Assembly (NCBI GenBank): GCA_028291985.1
Contig: JAQGNE010000080.1
Span: 1-64,000, forward strand
Direction: 5' to 3'
From: Polaromonas sp.
GTDB lineage: Bacteria; Pseudomonadota; Gammaproteobacteria; Burkholderiales; Burkholderiaceae_C
DNA length: 64,000 nt
Shown here: piece by piece, positions 13,095-17,581 of the stretch
Position numbering within the stretch: the first letter of the stretch is position 1
Layout: each line of letters starts with the position of its first letter
Notes under the pieces: generated by a model
Seen by the model: the letters and a program-made list of their open reading frames with translations, nothing else
Databases searched by the model: none
Told to the model about the DNA's origin: nothing
Made by a program: the position numbers and the translations under genes

Positions 13095-13763
13095 TCAGAT
13101 CACGCCGAACCAGCAGGCCCGCTGAACCGCAGCGAGCTTGTTGTCTACCTTGAGTTTGGCCATGGCATTGGACAGGTGAAAGTTGGCCGTGCGCTCGCTG
13201 CACGACAGATGCACACCGGTTTCGCGCGCTGTCAGGCCTTGAAAAGCCAGGCTCAGGCATTCCAGTTCGCGCGGGCTCAAAGGACTGCGCGCTTCGGCCA
13301 GCGCTCGCTTCAAAAGCGGCCAGATATTGAGTGCCGACCACGCCAGCAAGGCTGCCTCGCTTCTGTCATGCCACTGGCGCGGGCTGAACAGATAGCATTC
13401 AAAAGCGCGCCCTACCGTCAGCGGAAACGCAATGCGCACCACGCTCTGGTAGCCATGCGCCAGCCACAGCCGGCGCCAGCGGCCCATGCTGTCGAAGGCC
13501 GACTTGGAAATGTCCTGCCAAGCCACCAGCGGCGCATCGGAGTCGCGCCACGGCGCACCGAAATCACGGCTTTCAGCCAGCGCCTCCGCGGCATCCAGCA
13601 GGCGCGGCGGGTGAATCGCCAGCACCAGTCGATCCTCCTGCCCGCCGAAAGGATCCGGTCCCAGCACCATCAGGGCCTCAACGGAGTACTCACGAAGCGC
13701 GCACAGCCAGTCGTCAAGCACGCCGTCAAGGCTCACACTGTCAAAATTGGCAGGTAGCAGCAT
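13095..13763 (-). CDS. LuxR-family transcriptional regulator with autoinducer-binding-like N-terminus
   Basis: 222 aa; C-terminal LSPRELECLSLAFQGLTARETGVHLSCSERTANFHLSNAMAKLKVDNKLAAVQRA is a canonical LuxR HTH. Confidence 0.88.
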   Translation of the reverse strand: MLLPANFDSVSLDGVLDDWLCALREYSVEALMVLGPDPFGGQEDRLVLAIHPPRLLDAAEALAESRDFGAPWRDSDAPLVAWQDISKSAFDSMGRWRRLWLAHGYQSVVRIAFPLTVGRAFECYLFSPRQWHDRSEAALLAWSALNIWPLLKRALAEARSPLSPRELECLSLAFQGLTARETGVHLSCSERTANFHLSNAMAKLKVDNKLAAVQRACWFGVI

Positions 13764-13775
13764 TCAGCACCGTCA

Positions 13776-15206
13776 GTGGGTCAATGTTTGGGGTCGAAGC
13801 ACGCAGTAGTATGGCTGCTTGACTTCAAACCGTTCAATTTGCTAGCCGATACCCTTCGCAGTATCAGCCGCCTGCAGGCCAGATTTCGGCTGAAGACGCC
13901 GTGGATGGACCGCACCCTGGACTGGCTCCGGCAGGAAGTCGTCGAGGCGCCGCTGACGCCGGTACTGCACCCATCGCCTCTGCGCATGAAGGGGCTGGGA
14001 CTTTTCACGCTGCTGGGGCATCCGCTTTTTTACTTCTTGTGGGCCGTCTGGCTTCCGCAACCGTATGAAAGCCTGTGGTTGCGCATCATTGCAGCCCTTC
14101 TGGGCTGCTTTTTGATCAGCGGGCGCATCAGCAACAAGCCCTCCAGTGATCTGGCCGCGTTCGTCTTTTCAGCCGTGTCGTGGTTCGAATTGCCGTTTGT
14201 TTTCAGCTGGTTTTACTGGTGCAACGGTGGCAACCCAGTGTGGCTGGCCAGCGTGTGCAGCATGATTTTTATCTATTATTTTGTCACCGACTGGCGCATC
14301 GCCAGTGTCGGGCTGGCTCTGGGAGGACTGCTGACCTGGGCGCTCTTTCGACTGGTCGGACCCGAGACTGCCGCCATGAGCGCTTCGCAGACGCCGGTCA
14401 ATGCAGTTGTGATCGCATTCAGCGTCAGCATCAGCACGCTGTTGGGTGTATCGGCCGCCAACCTGCGGCGCCAGCAGCTCAACAACACACTGGCAACCAT
14501 TGGCATCATGGCGCATGAATTGCGCACGCCCCTGTCGACTGCAGCCCTGCTGGGAGACGCCATACAGCTGGAGCTGGAGCGCCAGCCTGACAATCCGCGC
14601 GCCTCGCACCTCAACAGATTGGCAGCGCGCCTGCATGCGCTGGTGCGCAACATGAACCGCCAGATTGACACCCAGATTGCCAATGCCAAGCTGCTGGAGC
14701 TACCGCGCCAGAACGAAGTGGTGGCGGCCGGCTGGCTGGTCAGGGAAGCGGTTTCCAACTACCCATACCTGACCCAACGGCAGCGCGATTGCGTTACCGT
14801 GACGGTACGGCAAGACTTTGCTTTCCGGTCTTCGGCCACCCAGTTTTCGCAGGTGCTCGACAACCTGATCAAAAACGGGCTTTATTCGCTGATGGCGGCC
14901 GACTCTGCCTACCCCAGTGATGCATTGCACCTGGAAGTCGCCACCTCCGAGAGCCGCGGCCAGATCATCGTGAGGGATCGGGGCACCGGTATCGAGCCCA
15001 CGCTGCTTCCGCGGATCTTCAAACCTTTTTTTTCCAGCAACAAGGGCACTGGCCATGGCCTCGGCCTGGCGTTTTGCCAGCAGGTGGTCGAAGGCGCCGG
15101 CGGCCGCATCCAGGCCGCATCGGACCCCCACGGCGGTGCCATTTTCACTATCGAGCTGCCCCTAGCAACGCCGGGTTCGAACGGCCCGCCCGGCAACCTT
15201 CCCTAA
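13776..15206 (+). CDS. Membrane sensor histidine kinase, CqsS/LqsS-like (start uncertain; ATG at 13902 also plausible)
   Basis: Multi-TM N-terminus resembling CqsS (GHPLFYFLWAVWLPQPYESLWLR), H-box MAHELRTPLSTAALLG, N-box DNLIKNGLYSL, GTGHGLGLAFCQQVV; no receiver domain. Confidence 0.85.
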   Translation: MGQCLGSKHAVVWLLDFKPFNLLADTLRSISRLQARFRLKTPWMDRTLDWLRQEVVEAPLTPVLHPSPLRMKGLGLFTLLGHPLFYFLWAVWLPQPYESLWLRIIAALLGCFLISGRISNKPSSDLAAFVFSAVSWFELPFVFSWFYWCNGGNPVWLASVCSMIFIYYFVTDWRIASVGLALGGLLTWALFRLVGPETAAMSASQTPVNAVVIAFSVSISTLLGVSAANLRRQQLNNTLATIGIMAHELRTPLSTAALLGDAIQLELERQPDNPRASHLNRLAARLHALVRNMNRQIDTQIANAKLLELPRQNEVVAAGWLVREAVSNYPYLTQRQRDCVTVTVRQDFAFRSSATQFSQVLDNLIKNGLYSLMAADSAYPSDALHLEVATSESRGQIIVRDRGTGIEPTLLPRIFKPFFSSNKGTGHGLGLAFCQQVVEGAGGRIQAASDPHGGAIFTIELPLATPGSNGPPGNLP

Positions 15207-15214
15207 GCATATTT

Positions 15215-16195: not shown

Positions 16196-16220
16196 CAGCG
16201 CGGGCGGCAAGCCATCACGC

Positions 16221-17468
16221 TCAGCCCCGGGCGGCCCTTGCGCGTCGGGCAATCGGCCAGTCCCACGGCTTGAGTAAAGGCGCTATTTCCTGGGCGACCG
16301 ATTCGACATGACTCATCTCTGCATCGGTCAGCGAGCTGTTGAGGGTCAGTCGAACCATTGCGCGGTTGCGGCTGGTGGCAGGCGCACAAAAAATAGAGCC
16401 GATGACGTCGCGGGCTTCCAGCGTATCGCGCAGGACCATGGCGCTGGATTCCGAGCCGGCTTCCAGGGAGATGATCTGCTCTGTGCCCTGATGAATGGGA
16501 AAGCCAACATCTGACAGGCTGGCGCGCAGGCGCGCAGTGTTGGCATGCAGACGCCGCCGGGCGTCATCGCTGCGCTGCAACACCCCCACAGTTGCACCCA
16601 GCGCTGCGATTTCATGCGGCAGCAGCGAAGAGCTGAAGATATTGGGAAGACTTGCCGTCAGGATGTAATACCGCAGGCTGGCCGGCGCCGTGAAAAATCC
16701 CGCGCGTCCCGCCATCGCCTTGGCCAGGCTTGCGGAAATGAAATGGACGCGGTCAGTAAGTCCCAGCTCGGCGCAAAGGCCAGCGCCCTTGGGGCCATGG
16801 GTTCCCAATGAATGTGACTCGTCGACCACGATCATGCTGCCATGGCGCTCGGTGACCTCCAGTATCTCGTGCAGCCGGCACACGGCGCCGGTGGTGCTGT
16901 ACACCGAATCCACGACGACCACACCAGGGCCGTGTGTCGTCATCATGCGTTCCAGATGGGCCGGGTCGTTGTGCCGAAATGCATGGGCTGGAGCGCGCGC
17001 GGCATGCGCGCCTTCCCACAAGGATGCATGAGCGAGCGAATCAAGGTAGACCGGTGTCTGGGCATCGGCAATGACTTGCAGCAAACCCATGTTGGCAGCG
17101 TATCCGGACTGGCATAACAGTCCATCCTCCTTGCCCACCCAGTCCGCCAGGGACTTCTCAAGCCGGTGCGCCGGGTGGTCGCCCAGCAAAAACACGCCCG
17201 ATTGCACAACGCTTTCCTGGCCTTGCGTCAAGGCGGCAATCTGCGCGCGCACGATATCGGGATGGCCGGTGACACCCAGGTAATCGTTGCCATCAAGCCG
17301 CACGGCTCCCGGCCCCGGGGTCCGGCCATGGAGCACGAACTTGCCGCCCCATTCACTTTCCCAGCGGCTTGAAAAATCGCGTGCGATCCGGGCAGCCAGC
17401 GTTTTTCCTAAGGCAGGGTTGTTGAAAGGCCGTGCAGCGGGCGAAAGTTTGCGGTCAAGAACTTGCAT
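16221..17468 (-). CDS. cqsA: CqsA/LqsA-type alpha-hydroxyketone autoinducer synthase (PLP-dependent alpha-oxoamine synthase fold)
   Basis: LDGNDYLGVTGHPD, LCQSGYAANMGLLQVI, VVDSVYSTTGAVCRL, VVDESHSLGTHGPKGAGLCAELGLTDRVHFISASLAKAMAGRAGF, FCAPATSRNRAMVRLTLNSSL closely match remembered CqsA sequence. Confidence 0.88.
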   Translation of the reverse strand: MQVLDRKLSPAARPFNNPALGKTLAARIARDFSSRWESEWGGKFVLHGRTPGPGAVRLDGNDYLGVTGHPDIVRAQIAALTQGQESVVQSGVFLLGDHPAHRLEKSLADWVGKEDGLLCQSGYAANMGLLQVIADAQTPVYLDSLAHASLWEGAHAARAPAHAFRHNDPAHLERMMTTHGPGVVVVDSVYSTTGAVCRLHEILEVTERHGSMIVVDESHSLGTHGPKGAGLCAELGLTDRVHFISASLAKAMAGRAGFFTAPASLRYYILTASLPNIFSSSLLPHEIAALGATVGVLQRSDDARRRLHANTARLRASLSDVGFPIHQGTEQIISLEAGSESSAMVLRDTLEARDVIGSIFCAPATSRNRAMVRLTLNSSLTDAEMSHVESVAQEIAPLLKPWDWPIARRARAARG

Positions 17469-17552
17469 GGAAACTCCAGAGATAAGGAACTTCCATTGAA
17501 GGCGCTTGGCCTGCCGGGCAGGTCCAGCCCCCTGTCAGATCTAACAGTAGAG

Positions 17553-17581
17553 CTACAACGGCGGCCGAATCGCCGTTGTAG
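17553..17581. promoter_or_regulatory. Perfect 11 bp inverted repeat with 7 nt loop upstream of cqsA
   Basis: ctacaacggcg-gccgaat-cgccgttgtag; no T-run on the cqsA strand. Confidence 0.55.

What the first reader, a model, noticed from the sequence alone, without database searches (positions are those of the whole stretch)
13095..17581. Lqs/Cqs-type alpha-hydroxyketone quorum-sensing locus combined with a LuxR-family regulator
Four genes form one locus: luxR-like (-), membrane histidine kinase (+), atypical response regulator (+) and a CqsA/LqsA-like autoinducer synthase (-). Established knowledge: CqsA/CqsS in Vibrio and LqsA-LqsR-LqsS in Legionella use alpha-hydroxyketones, and a related Jqs system is known in Janthinobacterium. 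Here the layout differs (synthase convergent with kinase-regulator) and a LuxR protein with autoinducer-binding-like fold sits divergently, with no luxI in the window. Inference: a combined AHK-LuxR signalling module in a Comamonadaceae-like host.
Basis: partly seen in the sequence, partly recalled or inferred. Interest (0 to 1): 0.9.

Follow-up and report, generated by a model that had tools for sequence, protein, structure and literature searches.

The report
Hydroxyketone quorum-sensing locus with LuxR regulator
A soil or water bacterium of the genus Polaromonas carries a known type of chemical cell-to-cell signalling system, and its relatives almost always add a second regulator that appears to switch the signal-making gene directly through two conserved DNA sites, a link I did not find described.

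Summary
The four genes are present. The 415-aa protein is an alpha-hydroxyketone (AHK) autoinducer synthase: 551 bits against a 428-bit equivalog cutoff, V. cholerae CqsA as nearest solved structure, and a tree apart from KBL/BioF. The response regulator is LqsR-family, and the kinase has six membrane segments plus an H-box. AHK clusters in Polaromonas were already reported (PMC3376566), and the convergent layout is normal in Burkholderiales.

What looks new is the LuxR protein. It sits divergently beside the module in 78 of 80 relatives, is better conserved than kinase or regulator, and is modelled with the QscR/TraR/SdiA fold; no luxI was found in 37 genomes of the genus. A lux-box-like palindrome (CCCTGTCA-N4-TGACAGGG) lies upstream of the synthase in 76 of 80 loci. 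A second copy lies inside luxR codons 3-9, where codon choice is frozen. The promoter box is absent from 11 loci of other families lacking this LuxR, and from the one Polaromonas that lost it. The synthase mRNA also has a covarying hairpin pairing with its start codon.

Best reading: an Lqs/Jqs-type circuit with a LuxR-type regulator wired into the synthase promoter and its own gene. Direction of control and ligand are untested. New variant of a known kind.

The parts
13095..13763 (-). LuxR-type regulator (222 aa): N-terminal autoinducer-binding-like fold plus C-terminal GerE HTH
   Evidence: GerE E=1.7e-14; AF2 model pLDDT 86.5, Foldseek best PDB hits QscR, TraR, RhlR, SdiA, LasR; divergently adjacent in 78 of 80 relatives
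13736..13755 (-). lux-type palindrome inside luxR codons ~3-9 (ACCTGCCAATTTTGACAGTG); proposed LuxR autoregulatory operator
   Evidence: Fixed position in nearly all loci; Pro codon CCT 76/77 vs 9% background, Phe TTT 77/77 vs 38%, Asp GAC 77/77
13905..15206 (+). Sensor histidine kinase, LqsS/CqsS-like architecture: six hydrophobic segments, H-box MAHELRTP, HATPase_c (ORF listed from GTG 13776)
   Evidence: HATPase_c E=6.3e-21; six TM-like segments; homology in relatives begins around residue 44 of the longer ORF; invariant H-box in 26 homologues
15215..16195 (+). LqsR-family response regulator, atypical receiver with ~50-aa insertion; 8 bp after the kinase gene, probably co-transcribed
   Evidence: Family profile matches PDB 6sy9 'Response regulator', E=1e-32 over positions 7-319; Response_reg E=8.9e-8
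16221..17468 (-). AHK autoinducer synthase (CqsA/LqsA/JqsA family), 415 aa, PLP enzyme
   Evidence: NF005526 551.5 bits vs cutoff 428; CqsA 3hqt E=1e-94 with the lysine of ASLAK and the DESHSLGTHGP motif aligned; tree separates it from KBL/BioF-like paralogues
17467..17496 (-). RNA hairpin in the synthase leader that pairs with the AUG start codon and the Shine-Dalgarno region
   Evidence: Covariation in 46 relatives: 9 of 11 pairs change on both sides, score 0.428 vs 0.230 shuffled and at most 0.294 for slid partners; mean fold z = -2.65 versus about 0 at neighbouring genes' starts; no Rfam match
17530..17549 (-). lux-type palindrome TACTGTTAGATCTGACAGGG upstream of the synthase; proposed LuxR operator about 43 nt upstream of the hairpin's 5' end
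   Evidence: Conserved in 76 of 80 loci at near-constant distance; 13 exact sites in 120 other genomes of the family, 9 upstream of an AHK synthase, none in the reversed-pattern control

Best explanation
This is an AHK quorum-sensing module of the Lqs/Jqs kind with a dedicated LuxR-type transcription factor. Step 1 (family assignment shown, chemistry inferred): the synthase makes an alpha-hydroxyketone signal from an acyl-CoA. Step 2 (family shown, signalling inferred): the six-segment membrane kinase senses it and signals through the LqsR-type regulator encoded 8 bp downstream. Step 3 (sequence evidence strong, binding inferred): the LuxR-fold protein binds a 20-bp lux-type palindrome at two places, the synthase promoter and the start of its own gene. 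At the synthase the box sits about 43 nt upstream of the putative transcript start, where lux boxes of activated genes lie, so it probably activates; inside luxR it lies in the coding start, so it probably represses. This would give signal-production feedback with a self-limited regulator. Step 4 (structure shown by covariation, role inferred): a hairpin at the very start of the synthase transcript covers the start codon and holds translation down until something opens it. What controls LuxR activity (the kinase-regulator pair, or AHK binding directly) is not settled.
For: Synthase identity. LqsR-family regulator. Kinase architecture. Conserved four-gene linkage and higher LuxR conservation (mean pairwise identity 0.73 LuxR, 0.53 kinase, 0.55 regulator). 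LuxR present in every genus genome with a synthase. LuxR fold. Box upstream of synthase. Box inside luxR with frozen codons. Box absent in 11 of 11 outgroup loci without this LuxR, and in Polaromonas sp. OV174 (L056), which lost luxR but kept the hairpin. Hairpin.
Against: No binding, expression or signal data. No conserved -10 element could be recognised between box and hairpin, so the transcript start and hence activation versus repression are inferred. The luxR box of this window has one core mismatch. Own-genome search shows only one exact core box, so the regulon here may be just this locus or use degenerate sites. The co-loss of LuxR and box is a single case (L056). The synthase's divergence pattern correlates less well with the rest of the module (r 0.53-0.68 versus 0.87-0.93), so synthase and receptors do not always travel together.
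Confidence: 0.7

Rival explanations
1. An ordinary Lqs/Jqs AHK system that happens to have a LuxR solo as neighbour; the LuxR belongs to another pathway.
For: Ten of eleven AHK loci fetched from other families lack any LuxR neighbour, so AHK modules work without one. The LuxR also has paralogues away from the locus.
Against: 78 of 80 loci keep the LuxR in place and it is the best conserved of the regulators. The same palindrome is at its own start and at the synthase promoter. Every genus genome with a synthase has it; of those without, only G016 does, and there the synthase is a remnant.
Confidence: 0.07
2. The two palindromes are sites of another transcription factor, not of this LuxR.
For: No binding data; several regulator families use TGTCA/TGACA half-sites. 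In Janthinobacterium a different palindrome (TTGA-N6/7-TCAA) marks AHK-regulated promoters and its factor is unknown (PMC5080296).
Against: The box has lux-box form and spacing; it appears only in loci with this LuxR and is lost where LuxR is lost; it overlaps luxR itself. The JAI-1 motif is absent from the outgroup promoters tested.
Confidence: 0.15
3. The LuxR is a second, cytoplasmic AHK receptor: it binds the alpha-hydroxyketone directly, in parallel with the membrane kinase.
For: AHL-receptor fold with a strongly conserved N-terminal domain (0.72 mean identity, close to the HTH); no luxI in the genus. An unrelated LuxR that does match PF03472 sits in the AHK operon of another family (L138).
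Against: Pfam PF03472 does not match any of 30 members and the region around residues 69-77 of the model is low confidence. Many LuxR solos act without ligand. No ligand data.
Confidence: 0.25
4. The inverted repeat over the synthase start is a DNA element (operator or chance dyad), not an RNA hairpin.
For: The 5' side (TTTCAAT) is nearly invariant in sequence, as a DNA signal would be.
Against: The stem sequence varies while pairing is kept, with many G-U pairs, and the pairing register includes the AUG; neighbouring gene starts show no such folding.
Confidence: 0.12

Closest known systems
Lqs system, Legionella pneumophila (LqsA-LqsR-HdeD-LqsS)
   Same: Synthase, membrane kinase and LqsR-family regulator clustered; the regulator profile aligns to 6sy9 almost end to end.
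   Different: No hdeD; kinase-regulator pair convergent with the synthase; an added LuxR regulator, lux-type boxes and a start-codon hairpin.
Jqs system, Janthinobacterium sp. HH01 (JqsA-JqsS-JqsR; PMC3566124, PMC5080296)
   Same: Betaproteobacterial AHK synthase with kinase and regulator; a conserved palindrome in QS promoters including jqsA.
   Different: Its motif is TTGA-N6/7-TCAA with unknown factor; the passages read do not describe a LuxR in the cluster; here the palindrome is CCCTGTCA-N4-TGACAGGG with a candidate factor next door.
Cqs system, Vibrio (CqsA/CqsS)
   Same: Synthase homologous over its whole length to CqsA; kinase of similar architecture.
   Different: CqsS is a hybrid kinase feeding LuxU/LuxO, and Vibrio 'LuxR/HapR' is TetR-type, unrelated to this LuxR (own knowledge; PMC3376566).
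LuxI/LuxR circuits and LuxR solos (LuxR, TraR, QscR, SdiA)
   Same: Fold of the LuxR protein; lux-box-like operator about 43 nt from the putative start; regulator gene in the same locus as a synthase gene.
   Different: The synthase is AHK-type, not LuxI; the Autoind_bind profile is not matched.
PhcX and lqs clusters of Burkholderiales (PMC10653808)
   Same: That survey maps lqsA/lqsS/lqsR arrangements across Proteobacteria, including many Betaproteobacteria.
   Different: It does not mention LuxR (no occurrence of the word in its main text).

Membership tests
AHK autoinducer synthase (CqsA/LqsA/JqsA) | Scores above the curated equivalog cutoff of NF005526 | tested here: met
   551.5 bits vs 428
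AHK autoinducer synthase (CqsA/LqsA/JqsA) | Groups with AHK synthases and not with KBL/BioF-type alpha-oxoamine synthases | tested here: met
   Tree: the 26 AHK rows on one side of a 99/94 branch, all 11 paralogues on the other
AHK autoinducer synthase (CqsA/LqsA/JqsA) | PLP-binding lysine and surrounding active-site motifs conserved | tested here: met
   ASLAK lysine and DESHSLGTHGP align with CqsA 3hqt
AHK autoinducer synthase (CqsA/LqsA/JqsA) | Produces an alpha-hydroxyketone | not testable with these tools
   Needs expression and chemical analysis
Lqs/Cqs-type two-component sensing | Multi-pass membrane histidine kinase linked to the synthase | tested here: met
   Six hydrophobic segments, H-box, HATPase_c; linkage
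Lqs/Cqs-type two-component sensing | LqsR-family response regulator | tested here: met
   Profile vs 6sy9 E=1e-32, positions 7-319; that 6sy9 is LqsR is own knowledge
Lqs/Cqs-type two-component sensing | Kinase responds to AHK | not testable with these tools
   -
LuxR-type quorum-sensing receptor | C-terminal GerE HTH | tested here: met
   PF00196 in 30 of 30 members
LuxR-type quorum-sensing receptor | N-terminal autoinducer-binding fold | tested here: met
   Foldseek to QscR/TraR/SdiA/LasR, E down to 6e-10, TM up to about 0.5 over the whole chain
LuxR-type quorum-sensing receptor | Matches the Autoind_bind profile PF03472 | tested here: not met
   0 of 30 members; 0 in the genome with E. coli as positive control
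LuxI/LuxR AHL circuit | Cognate luxI synthase | tested here: not met
   No PF00765 hit in this genome; none above cutoff in 37 genus genomes, positives elsewhere in the order
LuxR-type quorum-sensing receptor | Binds a lux-type box | not testable with these tools
   Boxes found; binding not tested

The most novel reading that the evidence does not exclude
The LuxR-fold protein is a direct intracellular receptor for the alpha-hydroxyketone, so that one signal is read twice, by a membrane kinase and by a LuxR-type DNA-binding receptor that controls the synthase gene, with a translational lock on the synthase mRNA.
Probability: 0.25. Interest if true: 0.85.

Novelty: new variant of a known kind. 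Interest (0 to 1): 0.62.

Why it matters
How AHK signalling reaches DNA outside Vibrio is open: LqsR has no known DNA-binding output, and the factor behind the Janthinobacterium JAI-1 motif is unknown. Here a conserved transcription factor with a conserved 20-bp operator sits in the locus itself, in Polaromonas, Hydrogenophaga, Ramlibacter, Caenimonas and other environmental genera. That makes the question testable with one gel shift and one deletion in a cultured strain such as Polaromonas sp. JS666. If the LuxR also binds the AHK, it would join the two large Gram-negative quorum-sensing architectures. The start-codon hairpin is a second, independent control point on signal production.

Tried and rejected
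Pfam Autoind_bind as a test of the LuxR N-domain: negative for all 30 members, so the fold claim rests on the AlphaFold model and Foldseek. CsrA as the hairpin's regulator: the loop/upper stem carries GGA motifs, but no CsrA (PF02599) was found in this genome while three control genomes rang; CsrA is unlikely here. Rfam: no match. A large palindrome at 17539-17595 looked like an operator, but no copy of its core with up to two mismatches was found in the 80 relatives. A wider regulon in this genome: core sites with up to one mismatch were 19 against 13 for the reversed control, too close to background. Boxes near the LuxR paralogues: none above chance. Literature searches for a LuxR-AHK link or for Polaromonas LuxR solos returned nothing describing this; the library lacks most subscription papers.
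Full report
What is there. The window holds four genes at the reported places: luxR-like 13095-13763 (-), histidine kinase ending at 15206 (+; the ORF list starts it at GTG 13776, but homology in relatives starts around residue 44, so ATG 13905 is the likely start), response regulator 15215-16195 (+), and synthase 16221-17468 (-). Neighbours are a type III pantothenate kinase gene and a rhodanese gene. 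The genome is 3.58 Mb in 94 contigs. Its genus includes a genome whose synthase-bearing contig matches that of Polaromonas sp. JS666 in length (G032, 570,689 bases; L044), and the best hits are Polaromonas.

The synthase is an AHK autoinducer synthase. It scores 551.5 bits against NF005526 (cutoff 428), while BioF and KBL models stay far below their cutoffs. The closest solved structures are V. cholerae CqsA (E = 1e-94, against about 4e-41 for KBL), with the ASLAK lysine and the DESHSLGTHGP motif aligned. In a maximum-likelihood tree, 17 Comamonadaceae synthases form one clade (100/100). Together with nine AHK synthases of other families they are separated from 11 KBL/BioF-like paralogues (99/94), although two paralogues sit on long branches.

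The kinase and regulator are of the Lqs kind. The regulator family profile matches PDB 6sy9 over almost its whole length (E = 1e-32), including the receiver with its long insertion; I know 6sy9 to be the LqsR structure, the tool only names it 'Response regulator'. The kinase has six hydrophobic segments, an invariant MAHELRTP-type H-box and HATPase_c. The genes are 8 bp apart on one strand. Clusters with lqsA, lqsS and sometimes lqsR were already reported in Polaromonas and other environmental bacteria (PMC3376566), and a later survey mapped them across Proteobacteria (PMC10653808). The convergent order is the usual one: kinase-regulator convergent with the synthase in 9 of 11 loci that I fetched from other Burkholderiales families.

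The LuxR protein belongs to the module in this family of bacteria. It is beside the kinase in 78 of 80 loci from Polaromonas, Hydrogenophaga, Ramlibacter, Caenimonas, Variovorax, Tibeticola and others; of the two exceptions one contig ends early (L065) and one has lost it from the locus (L056). All 16 genus genomes with a synthase above cutoff carry it (in one of them, G012, broken by a frameshift); of those without, only G016 does, and there the synthase is reduced to its two ends. It is more conserved (mean pairwise identity 0.73) than kinase (0.53) or regulator (0.55), and its N-domain (0.72) is nearly as conserved as its HTH (0.75). The AlphaFold model (pLDDT 86.5) finds full-length QscR, TraR, RhlR, SdiA and LasR as best PDB matches, although PF03472 matches none of 30 members. 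No luxI was found above cutoff in any of 37 genus genomes, with positives in four other genomes of the order.

Two operators tie it to the locus. Upstream of the synthase, 76 of the 80 loci carry a palindrome, consensus CCCTGTCA-N4-TGACAGGG; in the window it is TACTGTTAGATCTGACAGGG at 17530-17549 (-). Its distance to a conserved TTTCAAT element is nearly constant. In 120 other genomes of the family the perfect palindrome occurs 13 times, 9 of them directly upstream of an AHK synthase, and never in the reversed control. A second copy lies inside luxR itself, codons about 3-9 (consensus CCTGTYAACTTTGACAG, reading PVNFDS). There proline is CCT in 76 of 77 genes although CCT is 9% of proline codons elsewhere in luxR, phenylalanine is TTT in 77 of 77 (38% elsewhere) and serine is mostly AGT (8% elsewhere). 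These loci are related, so the counts are not independent, but DNA-level constraint is clear. The promoter box scores no better than chance in all 11 AHK promoters from families that lack this LuxR, while the in-family control L204 scores the maximum. Polaromonas sp. OV174 (L056) has lost both luxR and the promoter box at this locus while keeping the hairpin.

A translational element. From the CAAT element to the start codon the leader forms a hairpin that pairs with the AUG and takes in the Shine-Dalgarno region (window 17467-17496, -). In 46 diverse sequences, 9 of 11 pairs change on both sides; the covariation score is 0.428 against 0.230 in shuffles and at most 0.294 with slid partners. 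RNAalifold on the same alignment gives 8 pairs, 6 of them with double changes, but a weak consensus energy. Mean fold z is -2.65 over 78 unique leaders, against about 0 at luxR, pantothenate kinase and regulator starts. No Rfam family matches and no CsrA gene was found in this genome. The upper stem often pairs a U-run with the AGGA of the ribosome site, which would suit a thermometer; this is only an idea.

Possible further targets. Exact boxes lie upstream of an ABC-transporter gene resembling type I secretion ATPases in three Polaromonas genomes (L162, L167, L169; ABC_membrane) and at a few other sites. In the window's own genome only the synthase box is an exact core match.

How it probably works. 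AHK is made by the synthase and sensed by the kinase, which acts on the LqsR-type regulator. The LuxR protein acts on the synthase promoter, at a position typical of activation, and on its own gene, at a position typical of repression. The synthase transcript is also held back by its hairpin. Family assignments and DNA/RNA constraint are shown; binding, direction of control, ligand and chemistry are inferred. Whether LuxR is driven by the kinase-regulator pair or binds the AHK itself is the main open question.

Verdict. The AHK cluster itself is known; the LuxR wiring and the hairpin were not found in the literature that I could search, which lacks most subscription papers. New variant of a known kind, interest 0.62.

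Noticed in passing
L142 about 4098-4241 (G016:C194): In this Polaromonas genome the synthase is reduced to its first ~29 and last ~25 residues while kinase, regulator and LuxR are intact: a possible non-producing listener (cheater) genotype, or an assembly error.
   Followed up: partly
L136 906-1580 (G000:C44) and L137 2-508 (G000:C15): Two LuxR paralogues (67% identical to the window's LuxR) on short contigs of the same genome, without a synthase or a box nearby.
   Followed up: partly
L162, L167, L169 around 1501: The exact box lies about 125 bp upstream of an ABC-transporter gene resembling type I secretion ATPases in three Polaromonas genomes, suggesting a secreted product in the regulon.
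   Followed up: partly
L138 4654-5391: In a genome of another family (G043) a different LuxR with a true Autoind_bind domain is the third gene of the kinase-regulator operon next to the AHK synthase: LuxR proteins may have joined AHK modules more than once.
   Followed up: partly
window 16221-17468 and relatives: Synthase distances between loci correlate only 0.53-0.68 with those of LuxR, kinase and regulator (0.87-0.93 among themselves), and the window's synthase groups nearer to Ramlibacter and Caenimonas than to several Polaromonas: the synthase may have been exchanged on its own.
   Followed up: partly
window 17539-17595: A strong inverted repeat (CTACAACGGCG-N7-CGCCGTTGTAG core) just upstream of the synthase box, not found in the relatives.
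   Followed up: partly
L005 850-1560 (G012:C183): A genome in which kinase and regulator are missing and a frameshifted luxR lies directly beside the synthase; decay or assembly error.
   Followed up: no
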